DNA of 64,000 nt from contig NC_061062.1 in NCBI RefSeq assembly GCF_021917145.1, positions 14,530,706-14,594,705 on the forward strand. The letters run 5' to 3'. The notes under the pieces are model-generated. The model was not told the DNA's origin and searched no databases. It was given only the letters and a program-made list of their open reading frames with translations. This DNA is from Hypomesus transpacificus (Eukaryota; Chordata; Actinopteri; Osmeriformes; Osmeridae). Positions 50,975 to 61,760 of this stretch are shown here, piece by piece. Both the position numbers and the translations under genes were made by a program. Each line of letters starts with the position of its first letter. Position 1 is the first letter of the stretch.

Positions 50975-53900
50975 GAAGGTTAATACCTTTGGGATGCAGT
51001 TAGTGTGAGAACACACATTGTAATTTCTATTTTTTGGGTCACACATTCTGACGGCCGTCAGAAATGGTGACCTCTGTGGCACTGGCTCTGTGATGACTCC
51101 AAATCAGAAAACATGGGTCCATATTAGTATGAAAATTGTATGGTTCCAGATTAGTGTGAAGGGATGATATAACTACCACAAACCATTGTTTGAAGATTTA
51201 ACTCCTTTGGGAAGCAGTTACGGTGGGGTGAAGCATTTTTTGGAGGGCTTTTTTCGCGGGTCACACATTCTGACGGCCGTCAGAAATGGTGACCTCTGTG
51301 TTATTGGCTCTGTGATGACTCCAAATCAGAAAACATGGTTCCAGATTAGTGTGAAGGGATGATATAACTACCGCAAACCATTGTTTGAAGATTTAACTCC
51401 TTTGGGAAGCAGTTACGGTGGGGTGAAACATTTTTTGGAGGGCTTTTTTCCCGGGTCACACATTCTGACAGCTGTCAGAAATGGTGACCTCTATAGAAGT
51501 GGCTCTGTGATGGCTCCAAATCAGAAAATATGGTTCCAGATTAGTGTGAAGGGATAATATAACTACCACAAACCATTAATTGAAGTTTTAACTCATTTGG
51601 GAAGCATTTACGGTGGGGTAACACGTAATTTCGATCAATTTTATTTATTTATTTTTTTTGGGGGGGGGGGGTCACACATTCTGACGGCTGTCAAAAATGG
51701 TGACCTCTGTGGTATTGGCTCTGTGATGGCTCCAAATCAGAAAATATGGTTCCAGATTAGTGTGAAGGGATAATATAACTACCAGAAACCATCGTTTGAA
51801 GATTTAACTCCTTTGGGAAGCAGTTACGGTGGGGTGAAACATTTTTTGGAGGGCTTTTTTCCCGGGTCACACATTCTGACAGCTGTCAGAAATGGTGACC
51901 TCTGTGGTATTGGCTCTGTGATGGCTACAAATCAGAAAATATGGTTCCAGATTAGTGTGAAGGGATGATATAACTACCACAAACCATTGTTTGAAGATTT
52001 AACTCCTTTGGGAAGCAGTTACGGTGGGGTGAAAAATTTTTTGGAGGGCTTTTTTCCCGGGTCACACATTCTGACGGCTGTCAGAAATGGTGACCTCTGT
52101 GTTATTGGCTCCGTGATGACACCAAATCAGAAAATATGGTTCCAGGTTACTGTGAAGGGATGATATAACTACCACAAACCATTGTTTGAAGATTTAACTC
52201 TTTTGGGAAGCAGTTACGGTGGGGTGAAACATTTTTTGGAGGGCTTTTTTCCCGGGTCACACATTCTGACGGCCGTCAGAAATGGTGACCTCTGTGTTAT
52301 TGGCTCTGTGATGACACCAAATCAGAAAATATGGTTCCAGATTACTGTGAAGGGATGATATAACTACCACAAACCATTAATTGAAGTTTTAACTCATTTG
52401 GGAAGCATTTACGGTGGGGTAACACGTAATTTCGATCAATTTCCTTTTTTTTTTTTTTTTTGGGTCACACATTCTGACGGCTGTCAGAAATGGTGACCTC
52501 TGTGTTATTGGCTCTGTGATGACTCAAAATCAGAAAATATGGTTCCAGATTAGTGTGAAGGGATGATATAACTACCACAAACCATTGTTTGAAGATTTAA
52601 CTCCTTTGGGAAGCAGTTACGGTGGGGTGAAACATTTTTTGGAGGGCTTTTTTCCCGGGTCACACATTCTGACGGCTGTCAGAAATGGTGACCTCTGTGT
52701 TATTGGCTCTGTGATGACACCAAATCAGAAAATATGGTTCCAGATTACTGTGAAGGGATGATATAACTACCACAAACCATTAATTGAAGTTTTAACTCAT
52801 TTGGGAAGCATTTACGGTGGGGTAACACGTAATTTCGATCAATTTCTTTTTCCTTTTTTTTTTTTTTTGGGTCACACATTCTGACGGCTGTCAGAAATGG
52901 TGACCTCTGTGTTATTGGCTCTGTGATGACTCCAAATCAGAAAATATGGTTCCAGATTAGTGTGAAGGGATGATATAACTACCACAAACCATTGTTTGAA
53001 GATTTAACTCCTTTGGGAAGCAGTTACGGTGGGGTGAAGCATTTTTTGGAGGGCTTTTTTCCCGGGTCACACATTCTGACGGCCGTCAGAAATGGTGACC
53101 TCTGTGTTATTGGCTCTGTGATGACTCCAAATCAGAAAACATGGTTCCAGATTAGTGTGAAGGGATGATATAACTACCGCAAACCATTGTTTGAAGATTT
53201 AACTCCTTTGGGAAGCAGTTACGGTGGGGTGAAACATTTTTTGGAGGGCTTTTTTCCCGGGTCACACATTCTGACAGCTGTCAGAAATGGTGACCTCTAT
53301 AGAAGTGGCTCTGTGATGGCTCCAAATCAGAAAATATGGTTCCAGATTAGTGTGAAGGGATAATATAACTACCACAAACCATTAATTGAAGTTTTAACTC
53401 ATTTGGGAAGCATTTACGGTGGGGTAACACGTAATTTCGATCAATTTTATTTATTTTTTTTTTTTGGGGGGGGGGGGGTCACACATTCTGACGGCTGTCA
53501 AAAATGGTGACCTCTGTGGTATTGGCTCTGTGATGGCTCCAAATCAGAAAATATGGTTCCAGATTAGTGTGAAGGGATAATATAACTACCAGAAACCATC
53601 GTTTGAAGATTTAACTCCTTTGGGAAGCAGTTACGGTGGGGTGAAACATTTTTTGGAGGGCTTTTTTCCCGGGTCACACATTCTGACAGCTGTCAGAAAT
53701 GGTGACCTCTGTGGTATTGGCTCTGTGATGGCTACAAATCAGAAAATATGGTTCCAGATTAGTGTGAAGGGATGATATAACTACCACAAACCATTGTTTG
53801 AAGATTTAACTCCTTTGGGAAGCAGTTACTTTGGGGTGAAACATTTTTTGGAGGGCTTTTTTCCCGGGTCACACATTCTGACGGCTGTCAGAAATGGTGA

Positions 53901-56900
53901 CCTCTGTGTTATTGGCTCTGTGATGACACCAAATCAGAAAATATGGTTCCAGGTTACTGTGAAGGGATGATATAACTACCACAAACCATTGTTTGAAGAT
54001 TTAACTCCTTTGGGAAGCAGTTACGGTGGGGTGAAACATTTTTTGGAGGGCTTTTTTCCCGGGTCACACATTCTGACAGCTGTCAGAAATGGTGACCTCT
54101 GTAGAAGTGGCTCTGTGATGGCTCCAAATCAGAAAATATGGTTCCAGATTACTGTGAAGGGATGATATAACTACCACAAACCATTAATTGAAGTTTCAAC
54201 TCATTTGGGAAGCATTTACGGTGGGGTGAAACATTTTTTGGAGGGCTTTTTTCCCGGGTCACACATTCTGACGGCCGTCAGAAATGGTGACCTCTGTGTT
54301 ATTGGCTCTGTGATGACACCAAATCAGAAAATATGGTTCCAGATTACTGTGAAGGGATGATATAACTACCACAAACCATTAATTGAAGTTTTAACTCATT
54401 TGGGAAGCATTTACGGTGGGGTAACACGTAATTTCGATCAATTTCCTTTTTTTTTTTTTTTTGGGTCACACATTCTGACGGCTGTCAGAAATGGTGACCT
54501 CTGTGTTATTGGCTCTGTGATGACTCAAAATCAGAAAATATGGTTCCAGATTAGTGTGAAGGGATGATATAACTACCACAAACCATTGTTTGAAGATTTA
54601 ACTCCTTTGGGAAGCAGTTACGGTGGGGTGAAACATTTTTTGGAGGGCTTTTTTCCCGGGTCACACATTCTAACTGGGTTCAGTTTTAGGCCCTCTGTTA
54701 TTTTCACTCTATATGTTGCCTTTAGGAAACATAATTAGAAGTTTTGGGGTAGATTTTCACTGCTATGCAGATGATACTCAGCTATACATGTCTATAAAGC
54801 CGGGAGAATTTCCACATGCTATGGAAACCTGTGTTTCCGGGTTGAAAACTTGGATGACTGCAAATTTCCTTCTTCTTAATTTGGATAAAACCGAGGTTCA
54901 AATTTTTGGTCCGAAAAAACACCGAAATAATTTATCCCATCTAACCTTAGACTTAGACGGCGTCAAAGTATCTCAAAGCCAGCTGGTAAAAAATCTGGGA
55001 GTCACAATGGACCCAGACCTTTCATTTGAGTACCATGTTAAGCAAATCACCAGAACAGCATTTTTCCATCTACGTAATATTGCCAAAATACGAAAATTCC
55101 TCTCAAAGGATGATAGTGAAAAACTAATACATGCTTTTGTTACGTCCCGATTGGACTACTGCAATGTGTTGTTCTCTGGCCTCCCAATTACCTACCTAAA
55201 AAACTTACAGCGGGTGCAAAATGCTGCTGCTAGACTATTGACTAAAACTAGAAAGTTTGATCATATAACATCGACTCTTATCTCTTTACACTGGCTCCCT
55301 ATCCAAGCCAGAGCTGATTTCAAAGTTCTACTACTAACTTACAAATCTCTGCATGGATTGGCACCACTGTACCTCTCCGGTCTCCTTGCACCCTATTGCC
55401 CCGCAAGGTCTCTAAGATCTCAAAATGCCGGCTATCTGGTAATACCCAAAGTTAAGAAAAAAACTGCTGGAGGTAGGGCGTTCTCATATAGAGCACCTCT
55501 TCTTTGGAACAAATTACCCATCTCAATTAAGGAAGCTGATACTGTCTCGACATTTAAAACTAGATTAAAAACGTTCTTGTTTAGTCAATTCTATGATTGT
55601 TAAAGGGAAGTATGTGTGTACTTTCTATGTAAACCTGGGATGTGTGCTTGCCTATGTGTGTATCACATGTAACTTTTAAATTTTAATTATAGCTTATGTT
55701 CACATTGCCCAGCTAGATGTTACAAATAAAGTAAACCTGTTACTGTATATTGTTAGTATTATTATTATTATAGTTCCGTTGCTGTATATTGTTACTGTTA
55801 TAGTTTTTATTACTAGTTGGAGACAACGGGGGACTGGCTGTTTTCATCCTTATTCGTATAAGTATAACCTACTTTAGAGTTCTTTCCCCTGGAACAGATT
55901 TCATGTTCCAACTGAGGGGGGCTGTCGTTGTTTTGGTGTGTGGGGCTGCATCAAATACCCTTTTTGCTCTGTTAAATTGCTGCACTAGTCCACACTTGAC
56001 CGGTGGGGATCTCATTCTATTTTGACTGTAACTGTTAGCTGCTCCTGGCATTCTCTAATCCCTGCTCTCCTCTCTGTCCCCCCCCCACACATTCCCTGTG
56101 GTGTGGGGGGTTTGAGCTGTCAGGACCTGCTTGGTCGTCGGTCTGCCAACGCTGAACCAGGTCGTCACCCGGAATCCAGTCTCCATGACGGCCAACAGCG
56201 AGTTTCCCGGTCCCATCCAACGTCTATAAAGCCGAACAATGGATTTTGGTGTTTCAAAACCCATTGACACTGTATGACTATGTTTAGCTTGTGTTCTGCT
56301 CCTCTCTCTTACCAACCGTCTCTGGAGGAGGGGATCCCTCTCTGAATTGCTCCTCCCAAGGTTTCTTCCATTTTTTCTCCCGGTGGGAGTTTTTCTGGGA
56401 ATTTTTCCTTGTCTTCCTTGAGGGTTTAGGTTGGTTGAGGGGCAGTTCTATGGGCGCATGTGAAGCCCTCTGTGACATGCTTGCGTGTAAAAAGGGCTAT
56501 ACAAATAAAGTTGATTTGATTTGATTTGATCTGATCTGACGGCTGTCAGAAATGGTGACCTCTGTGTTATTGGCTCTGTGATGACACCAAATCAGAAAAT
56601 ATGGTTCCAGATTACTGTGAAGGGATGATATAACTACCACAAACCATTAATTGAAGTTTTAACTCATTTGGGAAGCATTTACGGTGGGGTAACACGTAAT
56701 TTCGATCAATTTCTTTTTCCTTTTTTTTTTTTTTTGGGTCACACATTCTGACGGCTGTCAGAAATGGTGACCTCTGTGTTATTGGCTCTGTGATGACTCC
56801 AAATCAGAAAATATGGTTCCAGATTAGTGTGAAGGGATGATATAACTACCACAAACCATTGTTTGAAGATTTAACTCCTTTGGGAAGCAGTTACGGTGGG

Positions 56901-61584: not shown

Positions 61585-61760
61585 GTGGGGTCACACATTT
61601 TTTGGAGGGCTTTTTTTCTGGGTCACACATTCTGATGGCTTTCAGAAATGGTGACCTTTGTGGAACTGGCTTTGTGATGGCTCCAAATCAGAAAATATGG
61701 TTCCAGATTAGTGTGAAGGGATGAAATAACTACCCCAAACCATTGTTCGAAGTTTTTCTT
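61585..61760. repeat. Diverged terminal satellite monomer beyond the hAT element
   Basis: GGGTCACACATTCTGATGGC ... CAGAAATGGTGACC ... GGTTCCAGATTAGTGTGAAG continues the array after the transposon. Its dyad is decayed (TCTGATGGCTTTCAGA). It is more diverged than any inner monomer, as expected at an array edge. Confidence 0.85.

What the first reader, a model, noticed from the sequence alone, without database searches (positions are those of the whole stretch)
50975..61760. Satellite monomer framed at its dyad looks like a MITE with abutting terminal inverted repeats
Each monomer carries a 38-bp imperfect dyad. The left arm GGGTCACACATTCTGACGG and right arm CCGTCAGAAATGGTGACCT pair at 15 of 19 positions. 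If the array is cut at the dyad centre instead of an arbitrary point, every 195-bp unit starts and ends with these 19-bp inverted repeats and units join with no spacer or target duplication. That is the structure expected if a short non-autonomous DNA transposon became a tandem satellite. Arms, spacing and periodicity are seen directly; the transposon origin is inference.
Basis: partly seen in the sequence, partly recalled or inferred. Interest (0 to 1): 0.75.

Follow-up and report, generated by a model that had tools for sequence, protein, structure and literature searches.

The report
Transposon-borne repeat turned fish satellite
A 195-base tandem repeat with a mirror-image motif is real, and it most likely descends from the inside of a small mobile DNA element in the same genome rather than being that element itself, a route from jumping gene to satellite already known from frogs and flies.

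Summary
The dyad is real: 29 places in the window, arms pairing 15, 14 or 13 of 19 in the 28 complete ones; 15 is reached in 0 of 300 shuffles. Unit spacing is 195 in 17 of 26 uninterrupted steps, otherwise 207-222. The interval also holds a LINE 3' end (54672-56534) and a hAT-like element (58479-61583).

The same genome holds the repeat (F1) in at least 38 places. Its ends lie all over the unit: 24 of 67 near the dyad, 15-17 expected. So the unit is not a MITE cut at its dyad.

A transposon link does exist. In 8 places F1 adjoins one ~175-bp sequence, F3. F3 lies inside short elements with ~45-bp terminal inverted repeats (25 pattern hits, reversed control 0); six have both ends. Seven F3 loci keep only the last ~60 bp of an F1 unit before F3. 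No two-ended element with a whole F1 unit was seen. F1 is best read as an internal tandem repeat of this non-autonomous transposon, freed and grown by block duplication. The dyad arms resemble inner TIR sequence (15 of 18; about 1% by shuffling). Target duplications could not be tested.

The parts
50980..54674 (+). Satellite array, first part (18 dyads, 51036 to 54463); the first unit is divergent
51258..51295 (+). One dyad: GGGTCACACATTCTGACGG|CCGTCAGAAATGGTGACCT, 15 of 19 paired
51258..51452 (+). One 195-bp type A unit
52657..52868 (+). One 212-bp type B unit with a T-rich tract before the next left arm
54672..56534 (+). 5'-truncated LINE (L2-like, name recalled) 3' end, inserted in a dyad and splitting the array; ORF 54713-55603 matches RVT_1 weakly, below the curated cut-off
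   Evidence: borders by eye
56535..58478 (+). Satellite array, second part (1 truncated and 9 complete dyads)
58479..61583 (+). hAT-like element inserted in the array; similar inverted ends (TGTGCGAAATAC), ORFs 58617-59216 and 59146-61008
   Evidence: Pfam matches below cut-off
61584..61756 (+). Last, divergent satellite piece (about 0.9 unit, one dyad at 61620)

Best explanation
The 195-bp monomer (F1) is an internal tandem repeat of a non-autonomous terminal-inverted-repeat DNA transposon, freed from that element and grown into satellite arrays. Shown: short elements in the genome have ~45-bp TIRs (composite of several ends: CAGGTGTTGCACCGAAAGCTGTGACCCATCAGAAACTGTGACCGCA), a left module, the last ~60 bp of an F1 unit ending ...GGGGTCACATATTCTGAC, then F3, then the other TIR. 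Shown: other F3 copies have one or more whole F1 units directly before F3, and at C1, C370 and C13 a TIR on the far side of F3; a second TIR was not found at these. Shown: the window array and most fetched arrays lack F3 and the TIRs; window units match units 1.5 kb or more away better than their neighbours. Inferred: a segment starting in or next to the inner TIR motif was duplicated in tandem inside the element; unequal exchange lengthened some arrays; ends were lost; pieces were spread further by recombination. Inferred: each dyad is the junction of a unit end and a unit start that both resemble the inner TIR (perhaps a transposase-binding site), which is why abutting units form a palindrome. 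Extra internal binding sites could help mobilisation at first, as suggested for Galileo and Tetris; long arrays would no longer transpose.
For: F1 next to F3 at 8 places (C169, C114, C16, C13, C9:1.63M, C370, C1, C23:5.95M; C114 and C16 are identical over the compared F3 stretch, so 7 independent; the last has only 41 bp of F3), against 0.003 pairs expected within 1 kb from 38 F1 and 20 F3 places (both numbers are lower bounds). The junction falls at the same place with small variants, TTCTGAC|AACTTACCC, in L046, L071/L072, L079, L081, L083, L084, L085. TIR 25-mer, up to 3 mismatches: 25 hits, reversed control 0; inverted pairs of 351, 411, 396, 986 and 1675 bp, each holding F3 or part of it; a sixth, L083, about 400 bp, read whole, ends matching 33 of 39. 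Left-module search, 19 of 19 candidates scored, 21 matches, largely the same loci. Of 17 F3-bearing matches, 6 have at least a unit of F1 before F3, C370 has a diverged stretch, 7 start at query 150-164 (5 at 150 or 151), 3 start later (190, 214, 296). F1 consensus against TIR: score 13, reached in 23 of 2000 shuffles. Closest relative at 98.5-100% for 25 of 29 window units and 1.5 kb or more away for 28 of 29, neighbours 86.5-97.9%.
Against: No target-site duplication seen: L083 shows none by eye, the others could not be read. No autonomous partner found. The window and L039-L058 except L046 have no F3 or TIR in the stretches held, so the derivation of those arrays rests on sequence identity and on the other loci. 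The arm-TIR likeness is about 1% by shuffling of the consensus; with single units it ranges from 0 to 74 of 500 shuffles, and for type B (L089 test) and for the old unit (L083 test) the best match was not the arms. The direction (element to satellite) is inferred. F1 is also next to a different palindromic family, F2, at 5 places, which this account does not explain.
Confidence: 0.68

Rival explanations
1. One reading: the unit is itself a MITE whose own TIRs are the 19-bp dyad arms; tandem insertion or head-to-tail joining made the array.
For: Arms resemble inner TIR sequence. The F1/F3 junction falls at the dyad. Mild excess of ends near the dyad: 24 of 67 against 14.8-16.9, p 0.007-0.036, or 0.031-0.109 when the shared F3 junction is counted once.
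Against: 43 of 67 ends are elsewhere; single copies L075, L076, L077 start and stop elsewhere; the true TIR extends about 25 bp past the arm motif; several older units have extra bases between the arms.
Confidence: 0.1
2. F1 was an ordinary satellite first, and the F3 transposon captured it, as proposed for miDNA4 in Xenopus.
For: F1 places without visible F3 outnumber F3-linked ones (38 against 8). No two-ended element with a whole F1 unit was seen.
Against: Seven F3 loci keep nearly the same F1 tail, 5 starting within 2 bases of one another, as if it were native to the element; the F3-linked units that I read (L071, L081, L084) are of the divergent type without the T-rich tract.
Confidence: 0.17
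3. F1 spreads mainly as extrachromosomal circles cut from arrays and re-inserted, not by transposition.
For: Some loci start and stop at nearly the same phase, at different phases in different loci (L039, L056, L074, L078).
Against: The excess is weak: 4-5 of 33 within 5 nt against 1.5-2.0, p 0.041-0.063; within 10 nt 6-7 of 33, p 0.14-0.15. My first version of the test looked stronger because of a pooling error. Does not explain F3 and TIR.
Confidence: 0.1
4. The dyad is kept for its own sake (for example as a cruciform or protein site of a satellite) and its likeness to a TIR is chance.
For: The same 24-mer before the right arm occurs in 57 of 247 complete units from 28 sources and close variants in most others listed (not compared with the rest of the unit). 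Likeness to the TIR is only about 1% by shuffling.
Against: Core variants are simple CpG changes; physical link to the element is far above chance.
Confidence: 0.12

Closest known systems
Tetris foldback element and TIR-220 satellite, Drosophila virilis (PMC4079207; abstract and sections 10 and 19 read)
   Same: [quoted passage not shown] the repeat shares a short stretch (37 bp, ~80%) with the outer TIR; rearranged, modular copies; units in both orientations.
   Different: Here an F1 piece is seen on one side, between one TIR and F3, not in two long TIRs; other sequences and host; target duplications (8-9 bp in Tetris) not testable here.
Xstir and miDNA4 MITEs, Xenopus (seen only through passages of the review PMC12628747)
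   Same: MITE-type elements whose internal sequence exists as single or tandem units, with hybrid forms and stand-alone arrays.
   Different: Different sequences and host, not compared; miDNA4 is Tc1/mariner and was read as capture of a pre-existing repeat.
Angel elements, zebrafish (passages of PMC12628747)
   Same: MITE of a teleost with a foldback amplification model; -> <- unit pairs occur here too.
   Different: No sequence compared; no Angel consensus was on hand.
hAT superfamily (recalled)
   Same: One terminus reads CAGGTG... (L068), compatible with the CAG ends of hAT elements.
   Different: Target duplication and transposase not tested; a lead only.

Membership tests
MITE (the F1 unit itself) | Dispersed copies begin and end at the unit's terminal inverted repeats | tested here: not met
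   24 of 67 ends within -23..+19 of the dyad, 43 elsewhere
MITE (the F3 element) | Terminal inverted repeats in inverted pairs | tested here: met
   25 pattern hits, reversed control 0; five inverted pairs plus L083
MITE (the F3 element) | Short, non-coding, multi-copy | tested here: met
   Four of six two-ended copies are 351 to about 411 bp, the others 986 and 1675; about 20 F3 places, 20 of 20 candidates scored. Only L083 was read whole, so coding capacity of the longer copies is not known.
MITE (the F3 element) | Target-site duplication of constant length | tested here: inconclusive
   L083 shows none by eye; flanks of the other pairs could not be fetched
Satellite DNA | Head-to-tail arrays with block-wise homogenisation | tested here: met
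   F1 matches also spread over about 16 kb at C7:7722594-7738537
Foldback element with tandem repeats in its TIRs (Tetris type) | Tandem repeats in inverted arrangement at both ends of one element | tested here: inconclusive
   Units in both orientations at L040, L047, L049, L050, L068, L069, L082; of these only L068 has a TIR match beside them
hAT superfamily | 8-bp target duplication and a hAT transposase of a partner | not tested
   The PF05699 search of the genome did not complete

The most novel reading that the evidence does not exclude
The genome keeps a set of otherwise unrelated repeat families (F1, F2 and the flank motif X of L077/L081) that share only short palindromic arms and sit beside one another far more than chance. 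The arms would then be swapped transposase-binding modules, and the dyad satellite an array of abutting binding sites for a still unknown autonomous element.
Probability: 0.2. Interest if true: 0.55.

Novelty: new member of a known kind. Interest (0 to 1): 0.4.

Why it matters
It shows several stages between a mobile element and a satellite in one genome: TIR element with a fragment of the repeat, F3 copies with a few units, solo fragments, and pure arrays of twenty units or more. That makes the direction of change testable by a rooted tree. It also shows that a dyad inside a satellite monomer can point to a transposon without being its ends.

Tried and rejected
Rfam on the window: 0 matches at gathering scores. 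MITE with dyad-centred ends: rejected on end phases. Circular re-insertion: one search gave p 0.014 within 10 nt and a near-dyad excess of p 2e-5, but I had pooled all T-rich-tract ends at one position next to the dyad; redone without pooling both are weak. Empty-site test: L069's upstream flank matches L055 up to 5 bp before the F1 start, but the match does not resume after the insert, so nothing could be read. F1-F2 likeness: weak with single sequences (best 5 of 300 shuffles, others 19 to 83 of 300); strong with consensuses (0 of 2000, where 1 of 12 F2 rows was really F1; repeated on 17 arm rows, 0 of 2000). A 21-bp terminus ending at GATGG was my first reading of L083 and L085; five other ends (L068, L083 left, L087, L088, L089) showed that the terminus is longer; L085 and L086 stop matching there, and L090 and L091 show no TIR in the 76 bases read. 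Literature: no paper in the library holds the left-arm string or the inner-TIR string (its six hits were unrelated papers holding one of the two 11-mers); '195 bp' with four other terms gave none; some searches gave listings for background only.

Rows dropped before counts: L072 (duplicate of L071), L068 and L069 (units in both orientations), the flipped end of L040, and L083-L091 were left out of the end-phase test; L079-L082 phases were read by eye. L044 and L045 are two stretches of one contig region and were counted as two. Some ends in that test are junctions with inverted units or with nested inserts rather than ends of F1 (L047, L049, L050, L078, L082).

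Full report
What is there. The satellite occupies 50980-54674, 56535-58478 and 61584-61756 on the + strand. A dyad is found at 29 places; 14 pair at 15 of 19, 11 at 14, 3 at 13, and one truncated copy at 11. Abutting arms scored 15 of 19 in three of four units tested, reached in 0 of 300 shuffles, and 14 in the fourth, reached in 1 of 300. Spacing is 195 in 17 of 26 uninterrupted steps and 207-222 in the rest, because a T-rich tract before the left arm varies. A LINE 3' end sits in a dyad at 54672 and a hAT-like element lies at 58479-61583.

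How the window array grew. The closest relative of 28 of 29 units lies 1.5 kb or more away, at 98.5-100% identity for 25 of 29, while the 26 neighbour pairs are 86.5-97.9% identical. One stretch of 1.7 kb (51139-52823) is repeated at 52945-54629 at 95%. That is multi-unit duplication, most simply by unequal exchange (inference).

Where else it is. Searches of the genome with four F1 queries and one F1+F3 query give at least 38 places on 29 contigs, the window included, by my count; the tool scores only the best candidates and caps its lists, so this is a lower bound. Places range from one unit or less (L073, L074, L080) to arrays of more than 5 kb (L040, L044, L047) and 3.9-4.4 kb (L043, L053); matches at C7 spread over about 16 kb. 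Units in opposite orientations occur at L040, L047, L049, L050, L068, L069 and L082.

If the unit were a MITE framed at the dyad, dispersed copies should end there. Of 67 ends measured, 24 lie within -23..+19 of the dyad (11 of 34 starts, 13 of 33 ends); 14.8 to 16.9 are expected (p 0.007-0.036; 0.031-0.109 when the shared F3 junction counts once) and 43 lie elsewhere. Single copies L075, L076 and L077 start and stop at other phases. Several older copies also have about 7 more bases between the arms.

The element behind it. Several F1 copies (L046, L071/L072, L079, L081, L083, L084, L085) run straight into one shared sequence, F3, after ...GGGGTCACATATTCTGAC or a close variant. The F3 search had 20 of 20 candidates scored and 21 matches. 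L083 (C14:9953660-9954110) has inverted ends matching 33 of 39, with the last part of an F1 unit and F3 between them. Ends L087, L088, L089 and the flank of L068 continue the same terminus towards GGTGCAACACC; L085 and L086 stop matching earlier, and L090 and L091 show no TIR in the 76 bases read. The pattern GGGTCACAGCTTTCGGTGCAACACC with up to 3 mismatches hits 25 times against 0 for the reversed control, with five inverted pairs: C366 (351 bp), C6 (411), C23 (396), C79 (986), C7 (1675); F3 or part of it lies in all five. The left module of L083 finds largely the same loci (19 of 19 candidates scored, 21 matches). So a family of small TIR elements exists. The F1/F3 link (8 places against 0.003 expected within 1 kb; 7 if C114 and C16 count once, and one of the 8 with only 41 bp of F3) is not chance, even if both families are several times more numerous than counted.

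What F1 is in that element. With a query of one F1 unit plus F3 (L084), 17 F3-bearing places match: six over most of it (C1, the query itself, C114, C16, C13, C9:1.63M, C169), C370 over 53-386 at 72%, seven from query position 150, 150, 150, 150, 151, 159 or 164 on, that is with ACAATATTTTGAAGTTTAAC (or a little less) and the rest of the unit up to F3, and three only from 190, 214 or 296. Short elements thus keep a fixed ~60-bp F1 tail that looks native to the element. C1, C370 and C13 have F1, F3 and a TIR beyond F3, but no second TIR was found there, and no two-ended element with a whole F1 unit was seen; the insides of the two long elements could not be read. The window and the arrays L039-L058, L046 excepted, carry no F3 and no TIR in the stretches held.

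The dyad arms. Right arm CCGTCAGAAATGGTGACC against TIR CCATCAGAAACTGTGACC is 15 of 18; the left arm of a unit of L070, TGGGGTCACATATTCTGATGG, against TGCGGTCACAGTTTCTGATGG is 18 of 21. The two matches are not independent, since the arms pair with each other. With single units the shuffle counts run from 0 to 74 of 500, and in two of eight tests the best match was not the arms; F1 consensus against TIR composite scores 13, reached by 23 of 2000 shuffles. I read the arms as copies of the inner TIR, perhaps transposase-binding sites, at about two in three. Tetris of Drosophila virilis is the close parallel: its TIR-220 repeat shares 37 bp at about 80% with the outer TIR, and its authors suggest extra binding sites by analogy with Galileo (PMC4079207, sections 10 and 19).

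A second family, F2, of palindromic units (CCTGATATAATGTGTATCCCCTCTGTAACT ... AGTTACAGAGGGGATACACATTATATCAGG) lies beside F1 at C6, C10, C23, C149 and C13, 5 places against 0.006 expected within 1 kb from 38 F1 and 33 F2 places. Its arm matches F1 just before the T-rich tract (AGTTACGGTGGGGTCACACATTATTTC), consensus score 19, 0 of 2000 shuffles, though single sequences gave 5 to 83 of 300. I do not know why; it is the base of the novel case.

Verdict. This is most likely a transposon-derived satellite, a known kind (review PMC12628747, passages seen), with several intermediates in one genome. Target duplications, the autonomous partner, a whole two-ended F1-bearing element and the direction of change remain untested.

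Noticed in passing
54672-56534: LINE (L2-like) 3' end with a TTGATT-rich tail, inserted between the arms of a dyad; 786 bp of it (55740-56525) are 99.4% identical to a copy in L057, which suggests recent activity.
   Followed up: partly
58479-61583: hAT-like element with similar inverted ends (TGTGCGAAATAC) next to G-rich tracts and a 620-aa ORF with weak matches to Dimer_Tnp_hAT and DUF659, below Pfam cut-offs; by eye, four satellite bases seem lost at its insertion point.
   Followed up: partly
23753-25600: ORF with collagen repeats and a C1q domain.
   Followed up: no
L041:1000-1900, L057:1800-2013, L047:1251-1461, L069:2474-2660: F2: palindromic repeat units of about 78 bp or longer, often joined by a TGAAAAAACGG spacer; about 33 places, beside F1 at 5 of them.
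   Followed up: partly
L040:681-1246 and L056:2839-3109: Another repeat, matching itself at shifted positions (tandem-like), borders two F1 arrays.
   Followed up: no
G000:C9:11363068-11363144: Inner TIR motif matched three times within 77 bp; L089 shows a similar short duplication.
   Followed up: no
L082:1-15: The fetched stretch starts with TGTTGCACCGA, the same as 11 bases of the TIR, directly before an inverted F1 piece; may be chance.
   Followed up: no
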